DNA of 64,000 bases from Auriscalpium vulgare (taxonomy: Eukaryota; Basidiomycota; Agaricomycetes; Russulales; Auriscalpiaceae), in contig JAHBBC010000029.1 of assembly GCA_019915015.1 (NCBI GenBank), positions 124,001 through 188,000 of the forward strand, read 5' to 3'. How positions within the stretch are numbered: position 1 is the stretch's first letter; each line of letters starts with the position of its first letter. Below are positions 4,059-51,849 of the stretch, one piece after another. A program made the translations under genes and the position numbers. Under the pieces are notes generated by a model. It worked only from the letters and a program-made list of their open reading frames with translations, made no database searches and was not told where the DNA came from.

Positions 4059-4780
4059 GCACGGGAGCGACGCAGCAATGGACGTGTACAACGGTGTACA
4101 AACTAATGATATAGGTTTCGTTCCAATCACTGACTTCTGACAATCTATATCGACTCGGGCACGACCGCTCTCCGGCGCGCATACTCCCGCGCACCGCACT
4201 GACCAAAGGACGTGCAGCGCGCTCTGAGAGCATGACCCGACTGCTTCCTGCAGAGGTCTACCTCCCATTCCCACTTGCTTTTCCCTTGCGCCTCCAGCCG
4301 CCATGGCAAGCGCGCGTGGGGCGCCTTACGGAGCACCGCTAGCCAGGAAAGAAGAGAAGGAGGAGAGATCAAGTGGTAATAGTATGTAATATCCTTGGAG
4401 AAGGAATCACACGGGCGACTCAAATGGAAGAGTACAACGATGTACTAAATGGAGACTGCCTCACGACGAGTTGCGTGGCTGGACTGGGATGACGACTGGG
4501 ATGACGAAGGATTCTCTCTGGCTGACTTTGTTAGAAAGATACGAATGATAGCCTGAGATTCAGAGGCTTCTTGACGCTGTGTTCCTGCTGCGAAGGACTT
4601 CGACGAAACAATAGTTAGTGCCGACAATTGGAATATTGTGACGGGTAGGCGCCGGTAGTTACATAATCCTCATTTCTTCGAGTGATTTTTGCAGTGAGAG
4701 CAGCTTGGTCTTGTCCCCGTCGAGAGCACCTTCTCCTCGTCCCATCCGCCTCTCGTTCTCCTCTTTCCTTCACGACAGTC
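4059..4780. other. Intergenic region between aip1 and the Rrm4-like gene
   Basis: About 720 bases with no convincing coding frame. It should hold the aip1 3' UTR and the promoter of the next gene. The last 80 bases before 4781 are rich in C and T, as is common upstream of fungal start codons. No repeat or RNA gene was recognised. Confidence 0.6.
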
Positions 4781-27421: not shown

Positions 27422-28527
27422 GATATGAACGATTGAACGTTCTGGTGGGACCAGGCCAGTAGAAATACCGTTTCCTTTAAATGTCGGTGCAGGAAGCACC
27501 GGGGCTCGCGCTGGGCAAGATCCGGGCGCCTACTTGCTGGGATTGCGCAGTGCGCAATTAAGTATGTCAGATGTGCTTCGAAAATAAGATCAATCCCTTC
27601 CTATCGTCACAATATTCGCTACTGCGCATTTGTGAGGCGACCGCGCCCAATGTCAGGTCGGGTTTCGAGATTTTGCTGGCATCTGGACTCACCGAAAGTG
27701 CAAAGATCCCAGCCTTAAGGCAAATAGCAGGTCGCAGCTTACTAGGTAATCAGTTCTGCAGGCAAACCAGAGGTGATTCTGTTTTCGGTGAATGAAGGGA
27801 GTCGGATCAAGTTCAGCGCTTCAGCACCGGGTGCCGCCGGCCGGGCCGCACCGCCGCCGGGGCCGAATACCACCCGAATGCCAGGATCGAGCCCTCAGAG
27901 CTTCCTTACTAGCTGACAGCATCATGGGTATCGGCTGCATGCATTGGATGTAAGGCTGACGACGCCGCTGCCACGAGTCAAAAGCCGTAGGAATCAATGG
28001 AATCGGATCCGGAAGAACCAAGTCCACTGTCCACGTCTACAGTGCATATGGATCGGTATGTCTTTAGGCCCTCATTTAGATTTGCCCCGGCGATGTCTGC
28101 CTGATTAACTCTGGTGGATTGTCAGGCGGTGTATTGTATCTCGATAACCTTCATCGTGAGGGCTAGACATTTGCTTTTGTGCTTGGTCAACGAGCTGCGC
28201 GTCTATCGGCGATACCATCGTCTAGTCGACGGCTTGTCTTGCGCAATTGTATATCAGCTGTGTTCGAGAAGAAGATCAATCACTTCATTTGAGCCCTCAC
28301 GATATTTGCTACTGCGCATACTGAAGGCCGTTGGCACTTCGTCGTTCTGCATCTTTGTGAGTTGTCTCCAACGCCACGCTCAACGGGTGTTAATTGTGAA
28401 TTGTACCCACGCCGGGCCCCATTGTATTCGGCCCTTCCTCTTCAGGCCTATTGTGATGCAATCAGTTAAAGATGGACGGCTAGCCTGGTTTCTTTGACCA
28501 CGTATACGCTCTCCAGGTATCCTCCCG
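27422..28527. other. Intergenic region with a diverged internal duplication
   Basis: About 1.1 kb without a supported gene. Two segments, about 27571-27632 and 28258-28320, share AAGATCAATC.CTTC, then AC.ATATT.GCTACTGCGCAT, about 690 bases apart in direct orientation. A GC-rich island lies at 27825-27880. Confidence 0.5.
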
Positions 28528-33565: not shown

Positions 33566-33597
33566 CTAGTCTTTAAAAGGCCATTGCAGAGCATGGC
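33566..33597 (-). other. Helitron 3' terminal hairpin and CTAG
   Basis: Plus strand reads A|CTAG, ten bases, then GCCAT..ATGGC with an inner GC/GC pairing (33580-33597). This is the classic Helitron 3' end seen from the other strand: hairpin, 10-12 bases, CTRR. Confidence 0.7.
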
Positions 33598-33659
33598 AGG
33601 ACGATTCCTTCGGTACTTTTCAGAACATCTCCCAGCCTTTTTGCATCTATCTTGTGTAC

Positions 33660-33907
33660 AATTCATATGTAACTCCAAGGTGAAATTCAATCAATAGCTG
33701 TAATTCATATGTAACTCCAGGGTGAAATTCAATTAATAGCTGTAATTCATATGTAATCCCAGGGTGAAATTCAATTAATAGCTGTAATTCATATGTAATT
33801 CCCAGGTGAAATTCAATAAATGACTGTAATGCATATGTAACTCTAGGGTAAAATTCAATTCACAACTGTAATTCATATGTAATTCAAAGGTGAAATTCAT
33901 TCAAAGT
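33660..33907. repeat. 42-base tandem repeat, about six copies
   Basis: The unit contains ATTCATATGTAA, a CC.AGGTGAAATTCAAT block and a TAGCTGT-like end. Copies differ by a few bases, the last two most. No unique spacers, so not a CRISPR array. Lies between the Helitron 3' end and its gene. Confidence 0.85.
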
Positions 33908-34077
33908 CATTCTGACACCTGGGTACACCCAGTCTGCCTCAATATCACACTTCTATAGGATTGGACTACTTTTCAAACAGCTCTCACCTTCCCTCACAGA
34001 CCTTCCAGCTAGAAATCAAGCAACAGAGATATTGAGACCCATTTTAGAAAGAAAATCAAGAGTAACATTAAAGGGAA

Positions 34078-34300
34078 TCAGGGGGATAATTGAGGGATAA
34101 TCAGAGGAAATCCAAAAGATATTCAGGGGGATATTCAGGGGAAATTCAAAAGATATTCAGGGGGATATTTAGGGGGATATTCAGGGTAGATTCAAAAGAT
34201 ATTCAGAGGGATACTCAGGGGGATAATCAGGGGAAATTCAAGGGATAAATAGGGAGATAATCATGGGGATAATCATGGAAATTCACAGGAAAATACAAAG
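34078..34300. repeat. Degenerate short repeats (GATATTCAGGGG-like)
   Basis: Roughly 16-30 base periods built from GGGGATATTCAG, AATTCAAAAG and GGGATAATC motifs. Purine-rich on the plus strand and non-coding, in the 3' untranslated part of the Helitron gene. Confidence 0.75.
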
Positions 34301-34378
34301 GCATCTGGACAGAGATTGATTGGCAATCTACCTGCTATCAGAATAGTATCATAGATATAACAGATCAATTCTTTTACT

Positions 34379-37300
34379 TTATATGTACAATGCAAGTGCT
34401 GCTGTACGACCTTCTGCTTCATATACATTGATGCTTTCCCTTGGTCCCTCATGGTTGAACTTGGTTTTTGTTGTCATACCATCATGATACCAAGTTTGAT
34501 CTTGAAGGTCAAATACACGCGCAGTAAAATGGAACCCACCATGATATATAATACCTGCCAAACGGTAGACACGTGTTGCATGGTCTTCAGCAATGTGTAT
34601 GCTTTTACTAAGTACAACATTGCGCTTTGAAATTGACAACATCAATACAGGAGGTAGCTCACCAATAAACTTAGTGACTATTGTCAGATGATCTCTGCAA
34701 ATAGAACACAGGTCATTTAATTGTCTATGCTGTGTATTCATAAATTCATTGGTATTGGTCGCACCAGAGTAACAGGGATCCCATAAGGCAGCAGGTTGAA
34801 CATGCTGTTTGTCAAGACGATGACACCTTATGCAACTTGTTTCATTGACCACTGAGCCTTTGTCATTTTTAAATAATTCCATGCACATGCTCCTAATATC
34901 TGTTCCATCCACAGCATTGTTGGGAAATTCACGAGGGTTCATGTTACGTATACTCATGCGCACAAGGTCACGTTCAGCCTCTGCTGTCCTACCCCTCACA
35001 GGATGTGACCACAAATCACTCATAAGATCTAAATGTTGATTCTTTCCTAGTATGTGTGTATTCCAGGTACTGCTTTCTACCGCAAAAACATTTCTAAGAA
35101 TTGTGAAAGTACTATCATAAGCACAACTAAGAGTCTTTTTATCCCATCTCAATCCTTTGATTTTTACTTTATGTACTATGGCTGCAGAGGCAGTTGCAGT
35201 CTTCCTACGTTTTGAAGGCTTGTCTGGTGCATCAGTTGTATCTTTGACAACTCCAGCGTCAACTGCCTCTTGGATATGCTTATTATGTGTACTTACTTTT
35301 GGTGTGGTAGTGATAGAGAGAGTGTTTGCTCTGTCAGTAAGAGGTAGTTTTGTCTTTGCATGTGCAGGAGGCTTTTTCAGCAAAGTCCATTCCAAGTCTG
35401 GTAGTACTGTCACCTTGTCCATGGGCTCTTTGGCAGACCAGGATATGGCATTATGCATGTGCTTAGGTGTGAGCAGTTTGCCAGAGTTGCTCCTATACTC
35501 CTGATACTGTCTTACAAGAGCAGTGCGAGTTTTAGCATTTATACCTTCAGGCAGTTTACCCATGTATCTCAGAGTGGTAATATGGTCTAGAATCTCTAAT
35601 TCACGAAAGTTTTGCCGATCCCATCCAGATAATCCTCCCTGAATCTTGTGTGGGAAGAAGCCTTGTACAATTAGTGTTCCTTGTAAGGATGATCCTCGTG
35701 ACAGCGCAGTATAGTATGACTGATGAGTGCGACAGTTGTGCAAATCCACTACATTGTATTTGCGAGTTCTACCTTGGGAAGCAAAGTCTGTCATTGCAAA
35801 ATTGGGAATGACCGGTACTTGCTCTCGACTTATACGCCAAGGTGTGTCATCAGGCATCTCACAGACAAGATCTTGTTTCTGTTGAGACACAGGTACTACA
35901 TTTTGACTCAAGCCAGTTAAATGAATATCTTGTGCAGGATTACTGAGATGTACAAACACAGTCTCTAGTGCTTGCTTGTCATGTGAAATGTCTTTTGCAC
36001 GCCACCCTACAACAGTGCCTTCTGCACCATTTGTTACACCAAGCTCAGTGGCTTCATTCTTCTTGATCATTATATGCATGCCTTTACATAAAGACAGTAT
36101 TCCAGGATGGTGATCTGTTACTGCATGAGGAAGATTCCACAGTATTTGCTGTGGGCCAAGAGCAATGACATTTGATGTCCGCAAAGGATCAACAATGTCT
36201 GCATTCTTCCGCTTACGACCTGGCTTTTTATCTGAGTCTGTATTTGTCCGCCATTTATCAATAGAATAGAAATGTGTGAGATGCTGGTGATGATCATCTG
36301 CAAACTGGCGACTATTCAATTCATTTAGACGATCACGATGTGAATTCAGACCTGTGATGACTGATACATATCTAAACTCAGGATCCCAGATATGAGGTTG
36401 AGCTTCACCACGTCCAGCAATTCGTGTGCGAAGCAATGCAATATCTGCATCAGTGCATGCACGATATCTCATATTTTCAAGAGCTGTGCGAAACTTGGCA
36501 TCTTCCGGAGTCTGAGTCTTCTGACGCATATTTTGACGGAGTATAACAACATGTGTTGACTGATGCCAGGTAGCTTTGCCCATAATACTTTTCTGTACCT
36601 TGTGACTATTGGTTGTATGTAAAACAGCATCTGGAGTTCTTGAGTATAATGCAGGACTTGTAGAAGGTGGGGGTAGCTGAGCAAAATCACCTGCAAAGAC
36701 CATGTTTTTACCTCCATATGCAGTATCATGAACCTGCATTGCAAGGCACATCTGAGCACTGATATTGTACAGGCTTTCACAATCTACCATTGAGATCTCA
36801 TCCAAGAATACATATTGAACATGCTTAATACGCTCGTGGACTTCATTCAAAGCCATCCAACTTTGCTGTGTTCCAAAACCATTAATACCTAGCACTGAAT
36901 GATAGGTTGAGCCTGAAACCAAAGCAGCTGCAGCCCCTGTTGGTGCAAGAACTAGAAACTTGTATTCTTGCTTCATTTCCTTGAAAAAGTGCATAAGTGC
37001 CTTTATGACTTGAGACTTGCCTGTGCCTCCCATACCACCTAAATACATTTTAAGCTGTTCAGCAGCTGGGTCAAGGACATGGTTTGATACAATCCGAAAT
37101 GCACGCTTCTGTTCAGTATTCAAAGTAAAAATTTGGGTAGTCTTAGTTACAATCTCTCGCTGCTCTTCTGTTCCTGCTATATGAGCCTCTGTTAGATATG
37201 CAAGGTCCACCACTTTCACAGTGTTTTCCAGGTCCTCCTTTTGCCCTTGTGCTGAGCTGGTGGCACTTGCTGCAGATGCCTGTTCAGCTCGTCCATCTAT

Positions 37301-40300
37301 TACCTTTTGCTTCTCTAAAGTTAGTACTGTTTTCCAGTGTGCAGCTGACTTTACAGACCCATCAAACAGAGGCTCAGTATCAATATCCATTGGAATGCTG
37401 CCCTTGCGTTCAAGCCAACCAGTCTCATGCATCACCTTTTCAATCTGAGTCATCTGGGTTAATCGATTCAAAGTCTTTTTCCCAATCACCTGCCACTGAC
37501 TTTCCAAGGCCTGTGCTAATTCTGTAAGATTTATTCCATTAGTATCACCGTCATCTTCAATAGTCTGATCCAAATGTTCAAAGATCTGATTAAATATTTT
37601 ACCTGTCATATCTCCCTCTGCATTACCTGCTTTGCGCTTAGCAGCATAATCATCTCTAGCATCATTGCATTCATATTTGATCTGCATAAAGTTCATGACC
37701 CGCCTTTGGTTGTCAGAAAATTCATGGCTCTCGAATGTGCTTTGCCATGTATCTCCACTATCTTTCAAGTCTTGTGGGACACGCCAAGGTTTGAATAGAG
37801 TCAGCATAGTTGAACAGTACTCCTCAATGTTACCTTGATCGCGTCTTGGAAGAGATCCACCCAAAAAATTTGGCACTTTTGATTTATCTTCTTTACATAC
37901 CCTAACTTCATGCGTGCCATGTTGAGGATGGGTAGAGATAAATTGATAAGACTGCATCCGACGGGGTTTCTTATTCTGTTTGGAACCATTTGGAGTGTAA
38001 TTTGAGTCAGGGTCTTCTTCTGCAAGATGGAGTCCTTCCACATCTGAGTCTGTGGTGTAGACAGATGCCTTGTCATCATTATCTTCAGATTCTGAGTCAA
38101 ATTCCATATCTGCATCCCTTTTGTCTGCTTGAACTTTACCAGATCTCGCTCTAGATTTACGTTTGAGTATTTTAGTACATGTTCGAATCCAGTCATAGAC
38201 ATTCATATGTATCAACTCTTTTGGCCGACACGTATAGTCCATAATAGCACTTTGCCCAACTATGAATCCTTTGATATTCTTTACAACTACTGTAGCATCT
38301 GGTGCATCATCGGAGGAGTCATCATTTGGTGACCAAAAGCGTAAGACATCATTGATATAGTTCTTCCAATAGAGCTTGGCAAACAAATGCATTGTATAGT
38401 GGTCAGGATGTCCTAATAAATATAAGGATGCCATTGGCCCTCCAATCTCCAGGCGCACATTCATATTGTTGACAATTTGCACCATCACTTTCTTTGCTTT
38501 CTGTAAACTAGTCAAGCTCTCATCCTCAAGTGTAGCATTCCGTTCAAATACAGTGCGAACAGCATCAAACATGACATGTGTTTTCAGAGGTGTTTTTGTA
38601 ATGTAGTCTGTGATGTATGCAATAATGGACTTAATTGCTGTGCCTGATAACAGACTTGTGACATCTGAGTTGCACCGAAGCACATAAGTAAGGACATAAG
38701 AAAATGTATTGAGCCATGCTTCATTTTGACGCATATTAATGCTGCCCGTTTCAGAGTCAACAGTGGTTGTAGGATTTGTATCTCGTGGAAATCTGGACTT
38801 ACATGTTTCATGTTTTGGATCAGTGCACCCAGCATGATGTTTGTGCTTGTTGAGTCGAAAGAGAAGGTCATCAACAGTAGATTCAAATTCTCTTTGCCAC
38901 TGAATATATGGCTCACAATTCATACAAGTGTCATTACTCTCATCTTTGTGACATTTGCATAATTTGGGTGGACATTTAGGCAACACAAGAGATGGCTTAA
39001 TATAATTATGTTCCTTTTCAGCTTCCTTAATTGCCTCTTCCACATGATCTATGGATCCTGTCAAAAACTCACCTGCATGTGCACTCTCGAGATATGCTAT
39101 CATGTCCCGCTGAAAGTCTGAATTCCGATCAAGAAGTTTATCACGTATTTCTTGGGGAGTAAGGACACCTTTGATCCATAGCAACATATGCAAATGTAAT
39201 GTTAGCCGCCCTTGTTGCTCGACAGTGCCATAATAACCGGCAGTGTCACCATAAAGACCTGAATGCTTAGAGCCGACACCTAAAACATGTTTGATAAACA
39301 AGTCAACCATGAGTTTAAAGAACTTGGCGCCTGCAACAGGGTTATTTGCTATCAATCGTACCCTCTCATCCTGCTCATAAAATGTGGGGAATATAGCAGA
39401 TGGCTGGCCAGCATAGTATAGTGCAATAGGGTGATTAACATCTGATGGTGCAAAGGTAATAAACCAAGATGGAGCTCCAAGGTAAGAAATTAAAGACCAT
39501 ATTTCACTACGCATATTCTTCTTGCTTGCCTTTGACCCTGGTACACCTGCAGCAACAAAATCAAGATCATTTAATATTTGATAACATGCACTCTCAGCAT
39601 CAGTGGATGCCTTTACATGTTCGCCTTTTGCCAGACGTTCAATCAGCTCTGTAAGAACACCAACATCAACCTTTGCAAGTCGATCTGCGATGCGACCAAA
39701 ATTGGCTTGTTTTGCCATAAGGTATCCTCCCAATGCACTGCTCTTGACTTGCTGATGATTTAAAGCAACTAGAGGAAACATTGGTTCAAATTGGAAACGT
39801 TTGTCATGGTACAAAAGCAAGTGGTGCAAGCGTCTTTTGTTGCTCATACCTTTGATACCATTATCATTTCCGACACCACCAAGGCCATATGGGAACAACC
39901 AAGGAAAGATCTGTGGATAAAGCTGAGGATTGTCATAGGTAGATATAGGGGTATTGGACTGCCCAATTCCAAGAGCCTTACCTCCATTAATAAGATGCTG
40001 CATAGCTTGTGCCTTCAGCTGCTCTGTAGACATCCTTTCAATTTCCTTTCCAGTCAGGGCATGTACTGTGAACGGACAAGCACCATCTGTAGTAGCCACA
40101 TCATCATCTGTATTAACAGATTTATTTTCACCAGTTCCTCCATCTGCTGATAACTTATACTCTGTCACAATAGGTACACCTTCTTCCTCATACTCAGCAA
40201 GATTGGTATAGGAGATCTCAAGGTCTCGATAATCAATATGATTGCATTTGAGCCACTCGAGAGCAGATGCAACTTTATTTCTCCGCACAAGTAGAGGGGT

Positions 40301-40585
40301 CCGTCTAAGGTCTTTGTCTGTTGGTTTTGTCTGACCAATATATACAAAGCCTATAATTTCATTCACATCCTCGCGCTTGGGTGGCAAAGCTGCGTATACC
40401 TTAGGAGTTGGCGTAGAAAAGAAAACAGCATTAGCACTCATCTTGTGCATCCCAGATGACATTACGCGAACTACGCATCGGTTATGACAGACCCGAGAAA
40501 TCAGCATTTTTTCTGCCCATGAGAGTCCTTGCAGTACTGACGGGATATCTCCCAACCAATTGCCATTAGCTAGCGCGGTCACCGG
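34379..40585 (-). pseudogene. Helitron Rep/helicase protein, main (C-terminal) part, separated from its N-terminus
   Basis: A single open frame of more than 2,000 codons. Order: a Cys-poor N-terminal Helitron region; Rep nuclease with the HUH motif TLHLHMLLW (about 39180-39215) and the two-Tyr motif YITDYITK (38595-38625); Pif1/RecD-type helicase with Walker A GGMGGTGKS (37011-37045) and Walker B VFLDEISMVD (36780-36815); then a Cys-peptidase-like domain at 34400-35160, with SCAYDSTF (candidate Cys at 35121-35123), zinc-type CIRCH and CSIC pairs, and GGFHFTARV (candidate His at 34529-34531) followed by a WYHDG motif. Rep nicks and joins DNA and the helicase unwinds it in rolling-circle transposition. 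The frame runs about 69 codons into the LTR at its 5' end; those codons are not native. It is disrupted only by the LTR insertion. Confidence 0.88.
40582..40585. other. Target-site duplication CCGG, left
   Basis: CCGG directly before the TGAT start of the left LTR. The same four bases follow the right LTR at 45182-45185. Counting them once rejoins the Helitron reading frame exactly. Confidence 0.8.
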
Positions 40586-41962
40586 TGATACGCCTGGTTC
40601 TGCGGTGTGCGGAGATCTCACTTCAATTTTTGAACTTTTGTCAAGTCGAGAGTTTCGCTTCAGAGTCACCTGACTTCGGAACTTGGCCAGCAGTTTCCGA
40701 GGTTTCAACCCAGTCACTTCCGAACTTTCCGAAGTCACGTGACTTCGGATTCCGAACTCGCACCGGTCTCGGCCCGCTAGCACAGCCTCCACGGATCTTT
40801 GCGAAGCGCCCGCACGTGATTCGGTCCAGACTTCACAAGCCCATCATCATCAGACACGCCCCAAACGTGATCCAGAGTCGAAACACTCACAGATTGTTGG
40901 GCTATGTCGCATCTAGGCCATATCCACTCCAGAACATTGCCCCCTCGTTCCCAGTATTGTCCCCTCCATTCCGACCCTACCTCGAGCCCTCCAGATGTGG
41001 TTCGCAGCGTTTCTAGCTGCGTCGAACCGCTACGCAACGCAATACTTCGGAAATTCGGACGATAGCCGCAGCGACTTCGGAACGCGTTCCGAAGTTAGGC
41101 GCACAATCCCACTGTGGAGTCCCTTATGTTTCATTGTCTTAGGTTTCATGACTACTCTTCTCAGGCTTCCTAGCAATGGCGTTCGACTTACCGTTTGCTT
41201 GCGACTTACTCATTTCTTGTGATCTTGACCCACTTGCTTCGTGTTTCGTTCTACTTATGCTCTTGTTTGTTCGCACGGTTGTATATTACTTCGGAATCAC
41301 TCGTAGTATATATAGGACTTGTCAGTACGATATTCTGGATCATATCATATGCCCCCTTCTTCCCCCTCATAGTGAGACTCACGCTAGAGACTCTCCTCGA
41401 CCTCTCGCATTGTCAAAGCGTTTCTGACTTTGCACCTTTCGACTTCGACTTCGACTTCGCCTTCGCCGCACGCCGCACGTATAGTATTTGACTTCGACTT
41501 CGGATCTCGACTCCGACTTCGACTTCGCCTTTGACGCACGTATCGTATTCGCCTTTCGTACCCTCCTTTGTCATTCAACTTCGACTTCGACTCCATCCTC
41601 GACCCAATCACTTCGGCACTTCGGCTCCATCACTTCGGCACTTCGGCTCCATCACTTCGGCACTTCGACTCCATCACCTCGGCACTTCGGAACCACGGCA
41701 TTCAACTTCGACTTTGCCTACGTTGCACGACCACTCGACACCCCGCAGATCGTAACATCCCCACACTTCCTCGTCCTTCCTAGTTTGGATCACTCCCGAA
41801 CTCACTGCTATCACGCTACGACCACCCCATTCCCACTTCGGAGACGCTCCCGGAGACTTCGGGACCACTGACGACTCGCCCCTCACACAACGGTACCGTG
41901 CACTGTGCTCTAGGGATAGGTATACAAGACATTACCGCCCTACTACCGGCTGGTACCCATCA
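40586..41962 (+). repeat. 5' LTR
   Basis: Begins TGATACGCC, ends GGTACCCATCA. A TATATATA element at about 41307-41314 could be the LTR promoter. Two internal simple-repeat patches occur: CGACTT.GACTTCG (41425-41525) and CACTTCGGCACTTCGGCTCCAT (41605-41695). Short open frames here are repeated exactly in the other LTR and are not genes. Confidence 0.92.
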
Positions 41963-41966
41963 TTAT

Positions 41967-41984
41967 TGGAGCCCACCGCGAGGG
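41967..41984 (+). promoter_or_regulatory. Candidate primer-binding site
   Basis: TGGAGCCCACCGCGAGGG begins four bases inside the 5' LTR with the TGG expected opposite a tRNA 3' CCA. The tRNA was not identified. Confidence 0.45.
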
Positions 41985-42180
41985 GACCAAGTCAGTATTC
42001 CTCCGAAGCCCTCGGACGTGTCCACTCCCTTTGATATAGGTGTCGCATCTCCAATCAACTTCGGATTTCGAGCGCTCGATCGCAACAACCATCCGAACCT
42101 AGGCCGGATACTTCGCCTCCGCACGCCTCATCCCTTCCACATCCCATTCACTTCGCCTCCTTCGCATCCCTTGTCTATTG

Positions 42181-44235
42181 ATGGCCTCGTATATGCCCCC
42201 TCGCCGCGCACGAACTGCACCGATGTTCGATCCCAAACAGCCCCGTAGGTTCTTCTCTGACCTTGAGAAGCTCACCACGTCTGCGAACATCACCAGTGAT
42301 CGCGCCAAGAAAGATTGGGCACAGAAGTACGTTGAACTTGACGAAGCTGATTTGTTTGACGCGATGGAAGTATTCTACGGTCCTGGTACCTACGACGACT
42401 TCAAGGAAGCAGTCGCGAACCTCTACCCAGGAGCCGAAGAAGACATCCGAAACTTCCGAACCATTGATCCAATTATGTTCGACATCGCCCCAGCCGGAGG
42501 ACCTCCAACTTCGCTCGTTTCCGAACAAATCGAGGCTATTGACGCAGAGTTGGCCTGGCTGCGCGAGCAACAGGCTCTCGAACAAGAGTATGATGGCATT
42601 GCAGCAATGCACGAGCCATCCGAAGTATTCGACACCGTTCCGAACCTCTGCTATGTCACCCCCGTTCCTGTGCCGCTCACATCTTCTCATCGTCGCGAAC
42701 CAGAAGACTGCAACATGACTTGGGTCACCGTTTGCTTCGACGCTTCGGATCCAGCGTTCGCAAGCGAGGCACAAGACCCCGCTGCCACGTCCTCGCCTTT
42801 GGAGCACTTCGCAAGCGCCCCGGAGCTTCGCTTCGCACCCATTGCACTGCGTACAACCATTGAACAAGTCCCGAACCAAGACGCAGAGATACGCAGCGAC
42901 GCGAACGACACCATCCCACTCACTCCACACCTCGGAACATTTCCGAGCTACCGAGGAGACGACGCACTACTCGTACAGGACATCCGAACTACCATCCCCA
43001 ACTTCGACACACTTCGCCCCATTCCCAGTGACAGCTACAGCCGCATTCCAATTGAACACCCGCAGTTCAACGTCTCGACGTTCATCATGCCCCGCATCAT
43101 CGACAAGCACCTCTCCAACCTCTTCCGAACTTACCAACGCATGTTCGACACTGGAGGCATGTTCTCTGCAATTGGCCACACTTCGACTTCACGTGGCATT
43201 GCGGGCAGCAATACCATCGTTCATAGCAACCCAGAGCAGCCGATGAAACACTGCTACAATTGCTTCGGACCCAGTTCGCTTGGTTTTCGAGCACGCAGCT
43301 CGACTCTGCCAACCTTCGAGTTAGGAAACTTCGGATTCTTTCGTGGACTTCGGACGCCTCACGTCCTTAGGAACCACATCACAGACATCAACCTTTCCTC
43401 CGACCACAGCATCTCGCACACCACGGCCGTCGCACATACAGAGGAGTCGCAACTTCGTCGCATCAACTTCGGAGTATTCCTAGGCTTCACATCCCTCTTC
43501 CTCGCGTTCAATCGTCGATTCCCACGGTACTTCGGAAGTGCCGCGCCTCCGCTCGACCTCTCGAACCAACATCCTGTCTCAACGCATTCCTCCTATACTT
43601 CGCGTTTTGCACATGGACGCATCACCATGACTCGCATCTTCCTCTTCCACCACGGCGCACCCATCATCCTTTGCGACTTCGCCAAACTACTTCGGATCTT
43701 TGCCACATCACTTCGGAAACTCCATATGGCGCACCTCGGAATCCTCGCGCACGTCGCGTATTGGGCTCTGACCGTGGACGGTCAGTATCAAAGTATGGAG
43801 GAGGTGATACGCCTGGTTCTGCGGTGTGCGGAGATCTCACTTCAATTTTTGAACTTTTGTCAAGTCGAGAGTTTCGCTTCAGAGTCACCTGACTTCGGAA
43901 CTTGGCCAGCAGTTTCCGAGGTTTCAACCCAGTCACTTCCGAACTTTCCGAAGTCACGTGACTTCGGATTCCGAACTCGCACCGGTCTCGGCCCGCTAGC
44001 ACAGCCTCCACGGATCTTTGCGAAGCGCCCGCACGTGATTCGGTCCAGACTTCACAAGCCCATCATCATCAGACACGCCCCAAACGTGATCCAGAGTCGA
44101 AACACTCACAGATTGTTGGGCTATGTCGCATCTAGGCCATATCCACTCCAGAACATTGCCCCCTCGTTCCCAGTATTGTCCCCTCCATTCCGACCCTACC
44201 TCGAGCCCTCCAGATGTGGTTCGCAGCGTTTCTAG
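42181..44235 (+). CDS. Gag-like protein of the LTR element, read-through into the 3' LTR
   Basis: A 684-codon frame from MASYMPPRRARTAPMFD. The first 100 or so residues (PRRFFSDLEKLTTSANI, KDWAQKYVELDEADLF, FYGPGTYDDFKEAVANLYPG) resemble the N-terminal part of fungal retroelement Gag/capsid proteins. After about residue 140 the sequence becomes unlike Gag, rich in Phe, Arg, Ser and Pro, with no CCHC knuckle. The last 143 codons are LTR sequence. The later part may be open by chance because the DNA is made of CTTCGGA-type repeats, which avoid stops in this frame. Function probably limited to particle packaging, if any. Confidence 0.55.
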   Translation: MASYMPPRRARTAPMFDPKQPRRFFSDLEKLTTSANITSDRAKKDWAQKYVELDEADLFDAMEVFYGPGTYDDFKEAVANLYPGAEEDIRNFRTIDPIMFDIAPAGGPPTSLVSEQIEAIDAELAWLREQQALEQEYDGIAAMHEPSEVFDTVPNLCYVTPVPVPLTSSHRREPEDCNMTWVTVCFDASDPAFASEAQDPAATSSPLEHFASAPELRFAPIALRTTIEQVPNQDAEIRSDANDTIPLTPHLGTFPSYRGDDALLVQDIRTTIPNFDTLRPIPSDSYSRIPIEHPQFNVSTFIMPRIIDKHLSNLFRTYQRMFDTGGMFSAIGHTSTSRGIAGSNTIVHSNPEQPMKHCYNCFGPSSLGFRARSSTLPTFELGNFGFFRGLRTPHVLRNHITDINLSSDHSISHTTAVAHTEESQLRRINFGVFLGFTSLFLAFNRRFPRYFGSAAPPLDLSNQHPVSTHSSYTSRFAHGRITMTRIFLFHHGAPIILCDFAKLLRIFATSLRKLHMAHLGILAHVAYWALTVDGQYQSMEEVIRLVLRCAEISLQFLNFCQVESFASESPDFGTWPAVSEVSTQSLPNFPKSRDFGFRTRTGLGPLAQPPRIFAKRPHVIRSRLHKPIIIRHAPNVIQSRNTHRLLGYVASRPYPLQNIAPSFPVLSPPFRPYLEPSRCGSQRF
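43795..43804 (+). promoter_or_regulatory. Polypurine tract
   Basis: ATGGAGGAGG immediately before the 3' LTR; the expected primer site for plus-strand DNA synthesis. Confidence 0.65.
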
Positions 44236-45181
44236 CTGCGTCGAACCGCTACGCAACGCAATACTTCGGAAATTCGGACGATAGCCGCAGCGACTTCGGA
44301 ACGCGTTCCGAAGTTAGGCGCACAATCCCACTGTGGAGTCCCTTATGTTTCATTGTCTTAGGTTTCATGACTACTCTTCTCAGGCTTCCTAGCAATGGCG
44401 TTCGACTTACCGTTTGCTTGCGACTTACTCATTTCTTGTGATCTTGACCCACTTGCTTCGTGTTTCGTTCTACTTATGCTCTTGTTTGTTCGCACGGTTG
44501 TATATTACTTCGGAATCACTCGTAGTATATATAGGACTTGTCAGTACGATATTCTGGATCATATCATATGCCCCCTTCTTCCCCCTCATAGTGAGACTCA
44601 CGCTAGAGACTCTCCTCGACCTCTCGCATTGTCAAAGCGTTTCTGACTTTGCACCTTTCGACTTCGACTTCGACTTCGCCTTCGCCGCACGCCGCACGTA
44701 TAGTATTTGACTTCGACTTCGGATCTCGACTCCGACTTCGACTTCGCCTTTGACGCACGTATCGTATTCGCCTTTCGTACCCTCCTTTGTCATTCAACTT
44801 CGACTTCGACTCCATCCTCGACCCAATCACTTCGGCACTTCGGCTCCATCACTTCGGCACTTCGGCTCCATCACTTCGGCACTTCGACTCCATCACCTCG
44901 GCACTTCGGAACCACGGCATTCAACTTCGACTTTGCCTACGTTGCACGACCACTCGACACCCCGCAGATCGTAACATCCCCACACTTCCTCGTCCTTCCT
45001 AGTTTGGATCACTCCCGAACTCACTGCTATCACGCTACGACCACCCCATTCCCACTTCGGAGACGCTCCCGGAGACTTCGGGACCACTGACGACTCGCCC
45101 CTCACACAACGGTACCGTGCACTGTGCTCTAGGGATAGGTATACAAGACATTACCGCCCTACTACCGGCTGGTACCCATCA
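43805..45181 (+). repeat. 3' LTR
   Basis: Same 1,377-base length as the 5' LTR at a constant offset of 3,219 bases. I found no difference on reading, and every short frame in it translates identically to its partner. Confidence 0.92.
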
Positions 45182-45185
45182 CCGG
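45182..45185. other. Target-site duplication CCGG, right
   Basis: Pairs with 40582-40585. Confidence 0.8.
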
Positions 45186-46078
45186 AACAGTGCCCTTTTT
45201 CATGTGACGAAGACAATCCTTACATATGAGACCAGAGTCATGTAGAAGGGGACCATCCAAAGGCAGGATGGAGTCATCAACCGATGAACGCGCCTGGCGA
45301 GCTATATATGTATTTTCTGTTTTCAGAATATCCATATTGAAGCTATCTGCTGTGAATGGGGTCAGGTCAATTTGTCGATAAATAGTGGCACATACCGCAC
45401 AAGCACTTTCAGATATTAGTTCTGGATTCAAGCTCGCACAGTAGTTAGATATAATCTGATGGATGAGCGATCTAGATGGAGGCTTTGGAGGAAAATCCGG
45501 AGTATCCACAGTGCCTTTCATAGCCTGTCGTAATTTTTGAACCCGTTGAGTACTGTTAACATTGTTATCTGTGCGGGCTGCATTGAAGGTGGTCACATGG
45601 TTAGCACATTTTCCCATGTGCACGTGTGCCTCTAAGCGTGCACGGAGGGTAGCCACAGGGGTACGTCCTGATCCTGGGATATCATGTAGCTTGCATATCT
45701 GAATGAGTTTGTCATATGTCAGACGCAGAAGCAGTTCAAGCGGGACATGCATTTGGATGTGTGAGGGGTCGTCATCCAATCTGGGGCCATGCGAGACAAA
45801 CATGAATAGGCCTGTATCATCTCCCAGTTGAAGATTATCAATGTAAGGAATTAATTCTGCATATGACCATGTCACCACTTTGCGCCCTCCGCCTACAAAT
45901 GACATGATGCGGCTGCGGCTGCGGCGCTCAAAGCTGCCATATCTTATATGCAGCCTTATTATAAAGCAAAGTGTTATGATGCAAATTGACATGACAAGTG
46001 TTATGCTGATGGCTGCCCACATGGGATGTGCTTCACCGTGCGTCACGTTGGACAGTATCATTTTGCTTATAGTCGCTC

Positions 46079-46190
46079 CGGACATTGTTACTTTAGATGG
46101 TGCCACTCCGGGCAAAATTGTCACATTTGACGGTGCCGCTCTGGGCAAAATTGTCGCATTCGACAGTGCCACTCCGGGCGAAATTGACAT
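46079..46190. repeat. Short in-frame tandem repeat in the Helitron N-terminus
   Basis: Three units of about 39-42 bases (GGTGCCACTCCGGGCAAAATTGTC variants) encoding the repeated SNATILP-like peptide on the minus strand. Confidence 0.7.
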
Positions 46191-46264
46191 TGTCGTATTA
46201 GATGTTGTCTCTTTGGATATGTAAAGCAGACTCTGAGTCATCAATAACCAGGTGAGGTGGGACA

Positions 46265-46800
46265 GAGGTGCAGTTTCTTATGAAAAGCGCACAGAGAGCG
46301 GAGGCTAAGAACAGTCGCACGCACAGAGACTGGAGGCTAAAAGATAGTCGCGCGCACGGAGAGCAGAGGCTAAGAGAACTCGCGAGTGGAGGCTCAGAGA
46401 CAGTCGCACACGCAGAGAGTGTAAGCTTAGAGACAGTCAAGCGCACAGAGAGGACACTGACAGATAGTCGCGCGCACGGACCAGCGGAGGCTAAGTGAAG
46501 TCGCGAGTGGAGGCTCAGAAGCAGTCGCACGCACTCAGAGTGTAGGCTCTGAGACAGTAGCGCACAGATATTGGAGGCTGAGAGAGATAGTCGGACAATG
46601 GAGCAGCTGAGAAACAGTCGAGACTGTAGGCTTCGAGACTGTAGCACGCACGGAGAGTGGAGCTGACAGATAGTCGAGTCGCACACACGGGGAGTGTAGG
46701 CTAAGAGACAAACAGGAGTGGAGCTCAAAGACAGTTGCGAGTAGAGGCTCAGAGCTCGCGCAACGAGAGTGAAGGGAGGTAAGGGCTAAGAAACAGTCGC
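46265..46800. repeat. Degenerate tandem repeat of about 33 bases, some 14-16 units
   Basis: Units built on AGTGGAGGCTCAGAGACAG then TCGCACGCAC with many small indels. Directly upstream of the Helitron gene on its own strand, so it may form its promoter region. Frames crossing it are Ser/Leu/Cys-rich artefacts. Confidence 0.8.
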
Positions 46801-46936
46801 ACAATCGCGCGAGAGAGAAAAAGGGGTGCCTGGATGGATATCAAGGCCGCAAGTCACCGACCTTATCCGATTCACACGGAGTCAAGCACGGGCTATGCTG
46901 GTGTCTTGCACTCTTAAATCAATTCATTGTTGTATT

Positions 46937-46959
46937 CCTAGTACATTACATCTACTAGA
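46937..46959 (-). other. Proposed Helitron 5' terminus
   Basis: Minus strand reads TCTAGTAGATGTAATGTACTAGG after an A. It contains an inverted CTAGTA..TACTAG. The next plus-strand base is T, as expected for insertion between A and T. Chosen by rule-fit only. Confidence 0.4.
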
Positions 46960-47914
46960 TAGCTATAAGAGCAATTAAAGTCTAAGGGTAGTGCCTAACG
47001 CGAGGCGACGAAAGGGGCGACCGCGCAAGTACCGCGTGATGGCGATGAGAGTGAGGGCGGCGGCGGAGGCAGAGTATGACGGCAAGGGTGGCGTAGGACG
47101 GTGGCGAGGGCGGCGTAGGATGGTGGCGAGGGCGATGTATGACGGCGGCAAAGGTGGAATATGCAGCGGCGAGGGCGGACACAGAGAGCGCGACGCGGCA
47201 GCCAAGGGCAGGCTGCGAGAAAAACCGGAAGTCAGCAAGTGGATCAGCAAGATTGGATTAGAGGATACACACGTGAAAAGGCGGCGGCAGCGCACGAGAT
47301 TGATGTGTGAAGAAGAGGTCATGCAGTCGGCAGCGAGTGCGACGGGGGACGTGGACGGGCGATAGCGACTACATCGGCGTTACACCGGCGTAGCGACAGC
47401 GACGATGGCGGGGCAGAAACTGCGAGGAGACAGCGACAGCGAGGGGCGGCGAGGGCGATGGCGATGGCGAGGTTGATGGGTAGTTGATGGTGCGATAGTG
47501 ATGGCGTCGGCGATGTCAATGTTGATGTGGACGGGAATGGGGATGGAACAGGGTAGGTAGCATTAGCTCACCGTCTTCCAGCCCTCAGGCCATTCTCCCC
47601 CCATCTCCGGCCTATCTCCTCTCCTCTCCTTATTGCCCTCGGTATCCATCCTCTGCGTGCGCGCCGCTCGATGGCTGTTGATGCTGGCGCTTTAGCTGCG
47701 ATGTGTCGCCTGCGCATCCCGTGGTGTGACGGCGCATGTGAGGAACTTGAAAGCACATGTTGACGTTGAAGTTGATGCCTTGCAGTGACGGCGTGAACTA
47801 GCACTTGTGCCGCAGGGAGAGGAGGTGGGACGAACCAAGGACGAACAGGAAGAAGGGAGTGCCGAGGTATCGCCGCGAAGCACAGCAACTTCGGCCGCGC
47901 CCGCACTGGCCGAT
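46960..47914. other. Low-complexity GGCGA/GATGGCG-rich region
   Basis: 47030-47540 consists of irregular GGCGAN and GATGGCGA repeats on the plus strand. Open frames follow from the bias against stops. No domain, no splice logic and no RNA gene recognised. Confidence 0.65.
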
Positions 47915-48065
47915 GCCGCTGCTGCGAGTCGAGCGCAGCCATCCGACACGGCGCCGGCGTCCTTACATAGGATGTCCGGACTCCTACAGGTGAGCTGTAC
48001 GCATCACAGGGCATTAATCATTCGATGATGGTGACGCTGCAGGAATCTCAATAGCAGCCCTCCAG
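47915..48065 (+). repeat. Diverged direct repeat, copy 1
   Basis: Shares with 49125-49270 the blocks AGTCGAGCGCAGCC, TAGGATGTCC, GGGCATT..CATTCGA.GATG and GCTGCAGGAATCTC, in the same order. Roughly three quarters of positions match by eye. Confidence 0.7.
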
Positions 48066-49124
48066 CACGGGTTTTGTGATCTGCTGGCCCACCCCCGCAC
48101 ACCACAACTCTCTCCGCAAGACAGGCACCATCACTCGACCGTCGATATCAATACACGCCCCAGTGTCGTGCCTGCCGTCCAAACGAGCCTGCGCTGCCTT
48201 GCAAGGTGTCAAACCTGGCGCCTCTTGGCTGCGCAGACCCGTCTCGAGGACGACGCGCATCGCTGGCCAGTCCGCTGACATTGTTGTTTCTTCTAGCACG
48301 ATGCTGTTTTCTTCTGCAATGCTGAATGACCTGCTAGCTATAGCCTATGTGCTCTTACCAAGGTGCGTGCGCAGATTCTCGCGAAGCGCAGCTGCTGACG
48401 ACTTCAACAACGTCGTGTACGACCACGAGGGTCTAGCCGAGACGACGGTCAAGCACCCCTCACCATTCCTTCCACGAGACGCAAATGAGCCCGAACGACG
48501 AGGCCGCCGGCGCGACGCGCCTCTACCGCCCGCAGGCATATCAACAACCGTCCTCTGAAAACTTGCGCTTCGCAAGATGACGACGCTCTACGGGACCACT
48601 GTCCCGCAGAGCGTGCCCAAGGTCTGTCGCTACGATGATGGGACGGGCGACGAGCTAAGTACCCATGCCAGCACGACCACGTTCATCTTAGACCTCGCGC
48701 CATGATTCAGCGACCCGCCGGCGTACATCTTCTAGCCGGTCCATTCCCACAGCAGCGGACTCAAACTAAGTGCTCATTCTTCTATAGCTATGTCCCCATG
48801 ATTGGTACGTCCTCTTGCTACAAATTCGGAGCCTTGACGTCAATTTGATCTTGTACTGCAGGCACGAGCGGGACCTGCGCTACATTGACGCGGCCGGACC
48901 AGGAGCGCGCGGTCCACCAGTGCAACCTCGCCGCCTCAGCGGACTGTTGAACATTGTCGACGAGCCCGGGCCTGCCGCGCTGCTCAGCCGCTCTCAAAGT
49001 GTCCGCGCTCTGCGCCGCCGGCGCCGTGTCGTACGGCGTAACCCCACCGCACCAAAGTGCGCACCCGCGATTGCGCCCCGCCGGCGTCATGCCCGGTCAC
49101 GCCGCCCACCTGCGCCGGCCTTGC
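48066..49124. other. Gene-like debris with at least one intact splice junction
   Basis: Short coding-like pieces appear on the plus strand: MTTLYGTTVPQSVPKVCRYD from 48578, and YVPMIG joined over a canonical intron (about 48805-48860) to TSGTCATLTRPDQERAVHQC. None can be assigned to a family, and stops interrupt each within about 30 codons. Probably remnants of a captured or decayed gene. Confidence 0.4.
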
Positions 49125-49270
49125 GACCTGCCGCCGCTGACAGTCGAGCGCAGCCCTCCGAAACGGCGTCAATGTGCTTAGGATGTCCCACAGCTAAGCC
49201 GTACGAATTTATGGGCATTCATTCGACGATGCTGATGCTGCAGGAATCTCTTTTGCAGCCTCCAACGCGT
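49125..49270 (+). repeat. Diverged direct repeat, copy 2
   Basis: Partner of 47915-48065, about 1.2 kb away and immediately upstream of the ribonuclease Z fragment. Confidence 0.7.
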
Positions 49271-49371
49271 CTTATGTAATCAATGTTGGTGCCCGCCGCC
49301 AACGACAATCTCCTTTCAACCCTCAACGAATTCGTGGCTCTCCCCCGCCACTCTTGAAGCGACGTCCAGCC

Positions 49372-50059
49372 ATGTCGCACTGGATGAACGTCGCTTTCCT
49401 CTCCGCCCCGCGCAAAATCGTCGTGCTCGGCGACACGTCCACGCCCGCCGCCCTCACGCCGTTGATCTCGGAGACCCCCGGACGCATCGCGCTGCTCGTG
49501 CACGAGGCGACCGACGCGCACATCCCCGCGCACGTCGACGCGGCACTCGCCAGGCGCCGCTCCGAGGCGCTCGTGCAGGGCAAGGTCGACGCGAAGGGCC
49601 ACTCGACGCCCGCGATTGCGGGGCGCTGGGCGGGCGAGTGGGGCGCTCGGCGGCCGTGCTGAACCACATCGGCGCGCGGTGCGTCCATATTATTCTTGCT
49701 TCCGTATCCCGGAGAATCTGAGGCGCAGTGGATGCAGGCTCCCCGCTCCTATTTACACGTCGCCTGCGGGCAAGAAGTATCGCACCGCGATCCTCGACGA
49801 GCTCGCGCGCCAGGCGACCGATGCGTGGCGCGCCACCGCAAAGCAGCTCAACAGGCCTGTGAGCTTGTTCGCGCCGCCCACGGGGCTGGTGAGCGAGCGT
49901 GAGCAAGAGGCGATCGTCGCAACCGACTTCCTTACGGTGTCAATATCCCCGAGCGGCCAGCCTGAGGGCACGGAGTCACGCTGGAGGCCGGGGACGAGCA
50001 CGCCTACTCGCGACCGTGACAGTGGGCGGGAATATACGAAGCGGAGGCGGGAGGGGTGA
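49372..50059 (+). pseudogene. Ribonuclease Z (tRNA 3' processing) C-terminal fragment
   Basis: Starts abruptly at SAPRKIVVLGDTSTPAAL, a segment from the last third of long-form RNase Z. It continues with LLVHEATDAHIP (the HEAT metal-site region), KGHSTPAIAG (HST motif), LNHIGAR, an intron (about 49680-49739), PAPIYTSPAGKKYRTAIL and a basic tail. The upstream metallo-beta-lactamase core with HxHxDH is absent. One G is missing at 49651-49654 (CGGCGGCC), shifting the frame before VLNHIG. So it is a truncated, broken piece of a tRNase Z gene whose full copy should lie elsewhere. Confidence 0.78.
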
Positions 50060-50244
50060 AGTGCTACTTATTTTGGGGGGCGATTCATGTTCATGTCTAG
50101 GACCGTGAGTGTAACTTCACTACTTGTATTATTCCTACCTGCAACGTCGAGTACTGCGGCACCGTAATATGATTTGTTATTTGCCATCTGCACGAGGGTA
50201 TTTCGCACAAGAGCGGAATCCCAGTAGAACCGGACAACTCGTTC

Positions 50245-50640
50245 TCATTCTTCCTCGTTGCCTGCCTCTGCCATCCTCGCCCTCTCGCGCGCGCCCTCAT
50301 CCCACATCACCCGCGTCCCCGGCAGCGCCTCGCGCGCGTGCGCCACCCACGCGCCGTCGACATTGCACTGTTCCACGTCAAGCTCCTGCAGGCGCCACCC
50401 CGCCTTCGCGACCCTCTGCGGCAGCCGCCACATTGCCCCTTGGGCCCCGGCCGCGATGCGCACGTCGTTGAGGACGAGGACCGCGAGCGAGGGGAGGATA
50501 GGAAGGACCCGGATCGTGCTGAGCACTTCGACCGCCTTGCGTGCCACGGTGAGGCGCCGCAGCGCGGGCGCGTCCGGCCACTGCCTGCACAGTGCACACC
50601 GCGCCCAGCTCGCCCAGCTCGGCGTGACCTCATCCAGACC
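50245..50640 (-). pseudogene. LRR (F-box-type) protein C-terminal fragment
   Basis: Minus-strand frame with regular leucine-rich spacing: ALRRLTVARKAVEVLSTIRV, LPSLAVLVLNDVRIAAG, WRLQELDVEQCNVDGAWV, ending in an acidic tail and stop. It looks like the end of an Agaricomycete F-box/LRR protein. Upstream (toward 50640) the coding character stops exactly where the LipB fragment begins, and no F-box or start is present. Confidence 0.6.
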
Positions 50641-51117
50641 CCACGCGGCGGCGAACTCACGTTCCACGGGCCCGGCCAGCTCGTCGCCTACCCGCTCCTC
50701 GACCTCGCGCGCGCGCAGCACCGTCCGCATGTACGCGTGCCTCCTGGACGACGCTCAAGCTGCACCTCGCAGAGGCGCACGGGCTGCAGGCCGTCCCGTG
50801 CGCGCAACCAGGCGTGTTCCTCGACGCGACCGTCGGCGTGCAGGTGCGCCACGGGCCGACGCTGGCACGGCGTCGCGCTCAACGTGACGCGCGCCCCGCT
50901 GCCCTGGTTTGAAGAGATTGCTGCGTGCGGGTTGGAGGACGTCAGCGCAGGCGCGGTCGAGGTGGCGACGGGGACGGCGGCAGATGTCGAGGCGGAGGTG
51001 CCGGGCCTAGTTGAGCGATTTGGGCGGGTCTTCGAGACGGAGATGCGCACACTGGACGGACGTGTACACGCTGTTATAAGTCTGAGAAGCGGCTGGATAG
51101 GGCTGTGGCACATGTAG
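50641..51117 (+). pseudogene. Lipoyl(octanoyl)transferase (LipB/Lip2) C-terminal fragment
   Basis: Opens in mid-protein at TPRGGELTFHGPGQLVAYPL, the RGGxxTFHGPGQLxxYP signature of LipB. LHLAEAHGLQAVPCAQPGVF follows in one frame, and WHGVALNVTRAPLPWFEEIA plus a C-terminal tail in another. The conserved K-x-A-S-I-G stretch between PGVF and GVQVRH is missing, removing the catalytic Lys. The N-terminal half is absent. The intact enzyme moves octanoate onto mitochondrial lipoyl domains; this copy cannot. It abuts the inverted LRR fragment with no spacer. Confidence 0.75.
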
Positions 51118-51849
51118 AGTGATAGATAAGAGCAATAGATAACGGAAGTGTCCGGAACGGGCAAAACCGGGTGGTAGATCTTTGGCGTTTCACAAACGGG
51201 CTGAAAAGGCCCCATTAGTAAACGATTTTCTTCGTACCTCAGGAATCGTAAAATTGCAGGGCACGGCATCTTCAAGGGAGCCGGGACACGACCGTCACAA
51301 CTTCCCCCATAGTTCCGACACTGGTCTGGTCTTGTGCGTAGTGCCATGCTACTAAGGATGCAGGGCTGTGCTTTGAGTGTGTGAGCGAGCTCCTTCGACG
51401 CATGACTCCTCTCACATAGCCCGGCGCCGGCGCATAATTATAGAACTGCTCGCCTTGTCTTCGACCTCCGGCTTCTCAAGTGCCTCGCACCAACGTTTCG
51501 TCGAGATTTATTGTCCATTTTAAGACGCAATAATATCGACCTTGAAATACGGACTTTCCACACGCGCGTCCCCACCTCGACAGTGGACACCCTGAGCGCC
51601 AATCTTCGTAGCGGAACTCCTCGACTTATCTTCGGTGCACACAAGCTCGAGAATGACGCCGTGATGCTATGCATGGAGCTCGGCTATGTGATCGCCTGCA
51701 GCGAGCTGCAGCGTATTAGGTGGCTGGTGGCTGTGTCCTCGTGTTTGGCCGACATCTACCTTTCGACTCGGATCACCAACAGCTCTCTTCAGGCCCTCAC
51801 CTCCCGCCCTCACTTAAGACATACACAACACATCGTGGTACACGTTGCC
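51118..51849. other. Intergenic region upstream of the EVH1 gene
   Basis: About 730 bases. An open frame runs into the next gene from 51511, but its extra N-terminal residues lack conserved features, and the downstream ATG starts the conserved domain neatly. No other feature recognised. Confidence 0.5.

What the first reader, a model, noticed from the sequence alone, without database searches (positions are those of the whole stretch)
33566..46959. Large Helitron with identifiable termini in a fungal gene-rich region
The left end shows hairpin, exactly ten bases and CTAG when read on the minus strand, next to host T; the element's own Rep/helicase is on that strand. The proposed right end gives A|TC..CTAG|T, the standard A/T insertion. 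If both ends hold, the element is about 8.8 kb without its nested insert. Both flanks of the gene are built of different tandem repeats (42 bases on the 3' side, about 33 on the 5' side).
Basis: partly seen in the sequence, partly recalled or inferred. Interest (0 to 1): 0.8.

Follow-up and report, generated by a model that had tools for sequence, protein, structure and literature searches.

The report
Fungal Helitron with deubiquitinase and cargo

Summary
Left end right, right end wrong. Copies on C10, C2 and C14 and a truncated one on C1 have different flanks and end at the same base as window 33566 (hairpin, 10 nt, CTAG, then T, minus strand). No other copy supports 46959. The three full copies share another 5' terminus, TTACGATTCC, which the window has at 51251. 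An empty site for the C14 copy shows A|TTACGATT...CTAG|T without duplication. The window element is therefore 33566-51251 (17,686 bp), with an LTR retrotransposon (40586-45181) inside the RepHel gene. Between gene and 5' terminus lie pieces of host genes: TauD-type dioxygenase, probable tRNase Z with a neighbouring F-box gene, lipoyltransferase. The C10 and C2 copies are 99.9% identical in their longest block: recent movement. RepHel ends in a 270-aa domain predicted to have the ubiquitin-specific protease (USP) fold, with conserved Cys, His and Asp; 36 of 50 Rep-domain matches in this genome have a match to this C-terminus downstream. OTU and VTD deubiquitinases are known in Helitrons; I found no report of a USP one. 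The termini mix a canonical 3' end with a non-canonical 5' end. Host: Auriscalpium or a close relative.

The parts
33566..51251 (-). Whole Helitron, 17,686 bp including the nested LTR retrotransposon; 5' end at 51251, 3' end at 33566
   Evidence: both ends shared with copies C10 (11,825 bp), C2 (11,904 bp), C14 (13,257 bp); empty site for C14; none found for the window copy
33566..33597 (-). 3' terminus: hairpin GCCAT-8-ATGGC (33580-33597), 10-nt spacer (33570-33579), CTAG (33566-33569)
   Evidence: same structure in a second family
33601..33616 (+). Candidate asymmetric terminal inverted repeat, 3' side: ACGATTCCTTCGGTAC, 14 of 16 bases as at the 5' end
   Evidence: 8 of 2000 shuffles as good for the window, 38 for C14, 1190 and 1166 for C10 and C2; internal control pairs of C10 reached 20 at the 99th percentile and 27 at most, against 22 for the window; perfect 8-mer in the second family
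33660..33899 (.). 42-bp subterminal tandem array (5.7 copies)
   Evidence: also in the C10, C2, C14 copies
34382..35191 (-). C-terminal USP-fold (deubiquitinase-like) domain; candidate catalytic Cys codon 35123-35125, His 34529-34531, Asp 34481-34483
34379..40585 (-). RepHel gene, main part: DUF6570, Rep (HLHMLLW 39176-39196; YITDYITK 38594-38617), PIF1 helicase (GGMGGTGKS 37013-37039), USP-like C-terminus; motif meanings recalled
40586..45181 (+). Nested LTR retrotransposon inside RepHel: LTRs 40586-41962 and 43805-45181, identical; CCGG on both sides; frame 42178-44235 without Pfam match; strand taken from that frame only
45182..46244 (-). RepHel N-terminal part, separated from the rest by the nested element; includes coding 33-bp repeats 46084-46186
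   Evidence: C10 and C2 have one uninterrupted 2,323-codon frame across this place
46245..48293 (.). Repeat-rich stretch; up to about 46990 found only at this locus, 47914-48252 shares short blocks with other loci
48294..48688 (+). Fragment of a TauD-family dioxygenase gene (C12:318220-318739), 79% over 288 bp and 73% over 113 bp
   Evidence: Pfam match on the C12 gene
49288..50584 (+). Fragment of a probable tRNase Z gene and the 3' end of the F-box gene beside it (C25:603285-605433), 90-92%; 853 bp of the donor missing inside
50563..51072 (+). Broken lipoyltransferase (LipB-type) fragment, 59% to the Auriscalpium vulgare protein P0010
   Evidence: Pfam LplA-B_cat below the curated cut-off in the window frame
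51166..51251 (-). 5' terminus: TTACGATTCC (51242-51251) with inverted mate AATCGT about 25 nt inside

Best explanation
A rolling-circle transposon (Helitron) inserted its copy next to a T, without target-site duplication. It reads, on the minus strand, 5'-TTACGATTCC (51251) ... hairpin-10 nt-CTAG-3' (33566). SHOWN: termini shared by independent copies, one empty site (for the C14 copy), recent mobility of the family, a RepHel gene with Rep and helicase domains, its interruption by an LTR retrotransposon, gene fragments between the ends. INFERRED: RepHel nicks at the CTAG end, peels off one strand and joins it to the target. The gene fragments lie on the 5' side of RepHel and include donor intergenic DNA, so they were probably taken up as DNA filler during break repair or template switching, not by read-through of the 3' end. 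The C-terminal USP-like domain probably removes ubiquitin from RepHel or partners and so protects them from degradation. This window copy is probably immobile by its own means now, because its gene is interrupted.
For: Ends. Empty site: C2 has CGTAAA|TACTAAAG where C14 has CATAAA|TTACGATT...GACTAG|TACCAAAG. Recency: C10 and C2 have 7 mismatches in 7,488 aligned columns in the longest block, 3 in 3,905 and 7 in 546 in others, plus a few gaps, with different flanks. Domains. Nested element. Cargo. USP fold; spread in the genome. A 3,109-bp element on C26 shares the first 38 bases of the C10/C2/C14 copies (37 of 38) and the hairpin-10-CTAG end.
Against: No empty site was found for the window copy itself: its left flank (65 bp tested) occurs only at C29 and C62, both filled, and C62 ends at 46545, before the right end. 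The window 5' end is degenerate (one base missing, others changed). The stretch 45546-51165 is mostly not alignable to the other copies, so its belonging to the element rests on the shared ends. The USP reading rests on a predicted fold and conserved residues; there was no sequence match in Pfam or PDB, the model is of middling confidence (pLDDT 79) and the superpositions are loose (Foldseek rmsd 5.5-14.7, VIA 3.7-4.8 in the rows shown). 14 of 50 Rep matches have no such domain downstream.
Confidence: 0.88

Rival explanations
1. One reading: 33566-46959, about 8.8 kb without the insert, canonical A|TC...CTAG|T.
For: TC follows a host A on the minus strand at 46959/46960.
Against: No other copy starts there; three copies share another 5' end, which the window also has.
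Confidence: 0.04
2. Two pieces: a Helitron lacking its own 5' end plus a separate solo 5' end at 51166-51251, with ordinary host DNA between about 46990 and 51165.
For: Middle part mostly not alignable to the other copies; the tRNase Z/F-box and LipB pieces are GC-rich (0.66 and 0.69, against 0.42 for the RepHel gene and 0.58-0.62 for the flanks).
Against: Orientation and order of the ends fit a single element; the C10, C2 and C14 copies carry 4.2-5.7 kb between 5' end and the RepHel frame; the host-like pieces are broken and joined out of context, as in captured cargo; the 51000-51300 query found this terminus at 4 of 4 places that also have the 3' end.
Confidence: 0.08
3. The C-terminal domain is a degenerate USP-like fold without protease activity (for example a binding module).
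For: No sequence-level match to USP in Pfam or PDB; moderate model confidence (pLDDT 79, 9 sequences).
Against: Cys and His invariant in 9 of 9 rows, HDG in 8 of 9 (the ninth row is truncated), three of four Cys of two pairs invariant.
Confidence: 0.25

Closest known systems
HELPO1/HELPO2 Helitrons of Pleurotus ostreatus (PMC4289320, passages read)
   Same: Basidiomycete Helitrons, subterminal hairpin, CT[A/T]G 3' end, Rep and PIF1 domains in one frame, non-autonomous relatives, an LTR retrotransposon inserted in RepHel in one copy
   Different: Described with AT insertion, T[C/G] 5' ends and RepHel of about 1,400 aa; [quoted passage not shown] Here 5' TT, a RepHel frame of 2,323 codons with a USP-like domain, and recognisable host gene fragments
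FoHeli / Helitron2-type elements of Fusarium oxysporum (PMC5148889, passages read)
   Same: asymmetric terminal inverted repeat with the 3' arm about 20-40 bp from the end, a hairpin-like repeat at the 5' end in the better-preserved copies, no endonuclease domain
   Different: FoHeli ends ATTTT or CTCCTGT; here hairpin-10-CTAG with T as next base
Helentrons with VTD or OTU deubiquitinases (PMC9741609, passages read)
   Same: deubiquitinase-type cysteine protease in the same protein as Rep and helicase
   [quoted passage not shown] here a USP-type fold, no endonuclease match, in a fungus
USP (peptidase C19) catalytic domains such as USP12, USP46, USP35, USPL1
   Different: 10-18% identity, about 260 aa, not detected by sequence

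Membership tests
Helitron (superfamily) | Rep (HUH, Y2) and PIF1-type helicase in one protein | tested here: met
Helitron (superfamily) | no target-site duplication, precise insertion | tested here: met
   empty site for the C14 copy; not testable for the window copy
Canonical Helitron (Helitron1) | 3' CTRR with hairpin about 10-12 nt upstream | tested here: met
Canonical Helitron (Helitron1) | 5' end TC | tested here: not met
   TTACGATTCC
Canonical Helitron (Helitron1) | insertion between A and T | tested here: not met
   3' T in 7 of 7, 5' A in only 6 of 12; A|T does occur (C14, C2)
Helitron2 | asymmetric terminal inverted repeat | tested here: inconclusive
   weak within the family and within reach of an internal control, perfect 8-mer at the same place in the second family
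Helitron2 | insertion between TTTT and T or C (as given in PMC5148889) | tested here: not met
   5' flanks vary
Helitron2 | phylogenetic grouping of RepHel with Helitron2 | not tested
   no named reference set was at hand
Helentron | AP endonuclease domain | tested here: not met
   no such Pfam match at E up to 0.001 in the 2,137-aa frame; the N-terminal frame 45162-46244 has no Pfam match
USP deubiquitinase (fold) | USP fold with Cys, His, Asp | tested here: met
   by prediction; superposition of the active site itself not examined
USP deubiquitinase (family by sequence) | match to a curated USP/C19 model | tested here: not met
   no Pfam match at E up to 10 in the window piece, none to USP in P0001 and P0002, no PDB sequence match at E up to 1
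USP deubiquitinase | ubiquitin cleavage | not testable with these tools
   needs biochemistry

The most novel reading that the evidence does not exclude
Helitrons have recruited a third, independent class of deubiquitinase: a USP-fold protease at the C-terminus of RepHel is a standard part of a large clade of fungal (and possibly other eukaryotic) Helitrons that lack the Helentron endonuclease, beside the known OTU and VTD classes. Deubiquitination would then be a recurrent need of rolling-circle transposition.
Probability: 0.6. Interest if true: 0.62.

Novelty: new variant of a known kind. Interest (0 to 1): 0.48.

Why it matters
It corrects the ends, which changes the size from about 8.8 kb (13.4 kb with its insert) to 17.7 kb and turns an apparent gene neighbourhood into transposon cargo. 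Pleurotus Helitrons were described as not tending to capture host gene fragments (PMC4289320), while 27 putative captures were listed for Fusarium (PMC5148889); this single element carries pieces of four genes. The USP-like domain gives a testable reason to ask why transposons of this type keep acquiring deubiquitinases.

Tried and rejected
Right end at 46959: rejected. C62 as a second insertion: rejected, same flank and gaps only over 20 kb. C1 as a full copy: only the last 166 bases were detected and no exact TTACGATTCC on either strand in the 15 kb fetched. Inverted repeat within the family alone: not significant for C10 and C2 (1190 and 1166 of 2000 shuffles as good); for the window 8 and for C14 38 of 2000, but 2000 random internal pairs of C10 reached a score of 20 at the 99th percentile and 27 at most, against 22 for the window and 19 for C14. 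Sequence matches for the C-terminal domain in PDB and Pfam: none to USP. Origin of the lipoyltransferase piece: the genome's complete LipB (C22) is 42% to the broken fragment and 52-54% to P0010; P0010 is 59-62% to the fragment; no intact P0010-like gene was found in this genome; the C22 protein is 67% to one from Rhodocollybia. Capture from a relative or later loss of the donor cannot be told apart. Papers: PMC4289320, PMC5148889 and PMC9741609 were seen as search listings and passages only, all others as listings. That I found no report of a USP domain in a Helitron rests on searches in the open PMC library only.
Full report
What was claimed. A Helitron from 33566 to 46959 with both termini readable, A|TC...CTAG|T.

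The left end. The genome (51.6 Mb, 96 contigs, window at C29:124001-188000) holds other copies. CTAGTCTTTAAA after a host A (plus strand of the window) is found on C10, C2, C14 and, truncated, on C1, each with its own flank. A 30-base 3'-end pattern allowing 3 mismatches finds 6 places, 0 for the reversed control. One of the six, C62, is the same locus as C29 (99.94% over 20,009 bp, gaps only). The structure is hairpin GCCAT-8-ATGGC, ten bases, CTAG.

The right end. The search with 46200-46990 finds only C29 and C62. C10, C2 and C14 match the window in order up to 45542-45545 and then again at 51166-51251 or -51253. Between these, C10 and C2 share only short inverted blocks with it (47914-47973, 48187-48253, 49076-49280), which also occur elsewhere in the genome. 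C10 and C2 match each other through the whole element and stop at its end (99.893% over 7,488 columns, 99.206% over 3,905, 98.718% over 546, and shorter repeat blocks at 96%). All three full copies end ...GGGAATCGTAA on the plus strand of the window; the window has ...GGAATCGTAA, ending 51251. Element lengths are 11,825 (C10), 11,904 (C2), 13,257 (C14) and 17,686 bp (window).

Empty site. C14 sits in a repeat whose other copy on C2 is empty: CGTAAA|TACTAAAG against CATAAA|TTACGATT...GACTAG|TACCAAAG; alignments of 80% (447 columns) and 87% (359) meet at the junction. There is no duplication; one base (T) can be counted to either side. No empty site for the window copy was found; 65 bp of its left flank occur only at C29 and C62.

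A second family. The 24-base 5' end occurs exactly in 11 places: 3 are ours (C10, C2, C14), 8 others lie on C8 (3), C23, C24, C26 (2) and C27; one more on C13 has 3 mismatches; the reversed control gives 0. The window copy is too changed to be found by that pattern. The 8 others share the first 38 bases with C10, C2 and C14 (37 of 38) and then differ. One copy on C26 is 3,109 bp long, with no Rep-domain match on C26, and ends GGAATCGTCCTGCCATGCTTAGCAATGGC-10 nt-CTAG|T; the second C26 copy ends alike in another flank. So 5' TTACGATTCC, the inverted ACGATTCC near the 3' end, hairpin, ten-base spacer and CTAG are kept while most of the rest has changed. The base after CTAG is T in 7 of 7 (C29, C10, C2, C14, C1 and the two on C26); the base before the 5' end is A 6, G 3, T 3 of 12 (the 3-mismatch C13 site was not counted). 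Taken alone, the inverted repeat is weak: 8, 38, 1190 and 1166 of 2000 shuffles as good for window, C14, C10 and C2, and random internal pairs reach higher scores at most (27 against 22).

The gene. The frame 34379-40792 (its first 207 bases lie in the LTR) has DUF6570, Helitron_like_N and PIF1 and the motifs HLHMLLW, YITDYITK and GGMGGTGKS (read as HUH, two tyrosines and Walker A from recall). In C10 and C2 it is one frame of 2,323 codons; in C14 it is broken in two. In the window an LTR retrotransposon (LTRs without mismatch over 1,379 bp, or 1,377 counted from TG; CCGG at both sides) lies inside it.

Cargo. 48294-48688 matches a TauD-family gene on C12 (79% over 288 bp and 73% over 113 bp). 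49288-50584 matches C25 at 90-92% across part of a probable tRNase Z gene, the DNA behind it and the end of an F-box gene, with 853 bp missing inside. The two metallo-lactamase/tRNase Z Pfam matches are below the curated cut-off (E 0.009), so that name is tentative; the F-box match of the neighbour is above it. 50563-51072 is a broken lipoyltransferase closest, among the 120 of 4,657 matches listed, to Auriscalpium vulgare (59-62%), not to the genome's own complete LipB (42%); the window frame's own Pfam match is below the cut-off. These pieces lie on the 5' side of RepHel. In one search only 40 of 52 candidates were scored, so closer donors may have been missed.

Host. A hydrolase at 26264-27499 is 97% identical over 90% to one of Auriscalpium vulgare (Russulales); the next four named ones are 56-67% (only the 8,000 candidates sharing most words were scored). 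So the host is this species or a close relative.

Verdict. Helitron confirmed, left end confirmed, right end moved to 51251, size and content changed. The specially interesting part is the USP-like C-terminal domain and the mixed termini.

Noticed in passing
window 40586-45181: Nested LTR retrotransposon with identical LTRs and one long frame without Pfam match: looks recent and non-autonomous; another LTR copy (98%) lies on C14 just outside the Helitron there.
   Followed up: partly
window 50563-51072; C22:76751-77476: The broken lipoyltransferase is nearer to the Auriscalpium vulgare protein P0010 than to this genome's complete LipB, and no intact P0010-like gene was found here: possible loss or transfer.
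   Followed up: partly
C7:1369384-1370044, C9:833364-834024, C19:377211-377871: In one related Helitron family about the last 66 residues of the USP-like domain are repeated as three extra pieces at 236-239 bp spacing beyond the gene; fewer such pieces on C13, C58 and C9:1437897.
   Followed up: no
L077 (C26), read on its minus strand, about 2384-5197: A 2.8-kb insertion with inverted ends CATCAGCAAAAGTGCA and TA on both sides inside a non-autonomous Helitron, probably a TIR DNA transposon.
   Followed up: no
C8:884244 (+) and C8:894784 (-): Two 5' ends of the second family in opposite orientation 10.5 kb apart; whether two elements or one rearranged is open.
   Followed up: no
whole genome G000: 50 Rep-domain (PF14214) matches, about 48 loci after removing C62 and one split locus: a Helitron-rich basidiomycete genome.
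   Followed up: partly
window 46245-47900: Repeat-rich, mostly unique stretch within the element whose origin was not found.
   Followed up: partly
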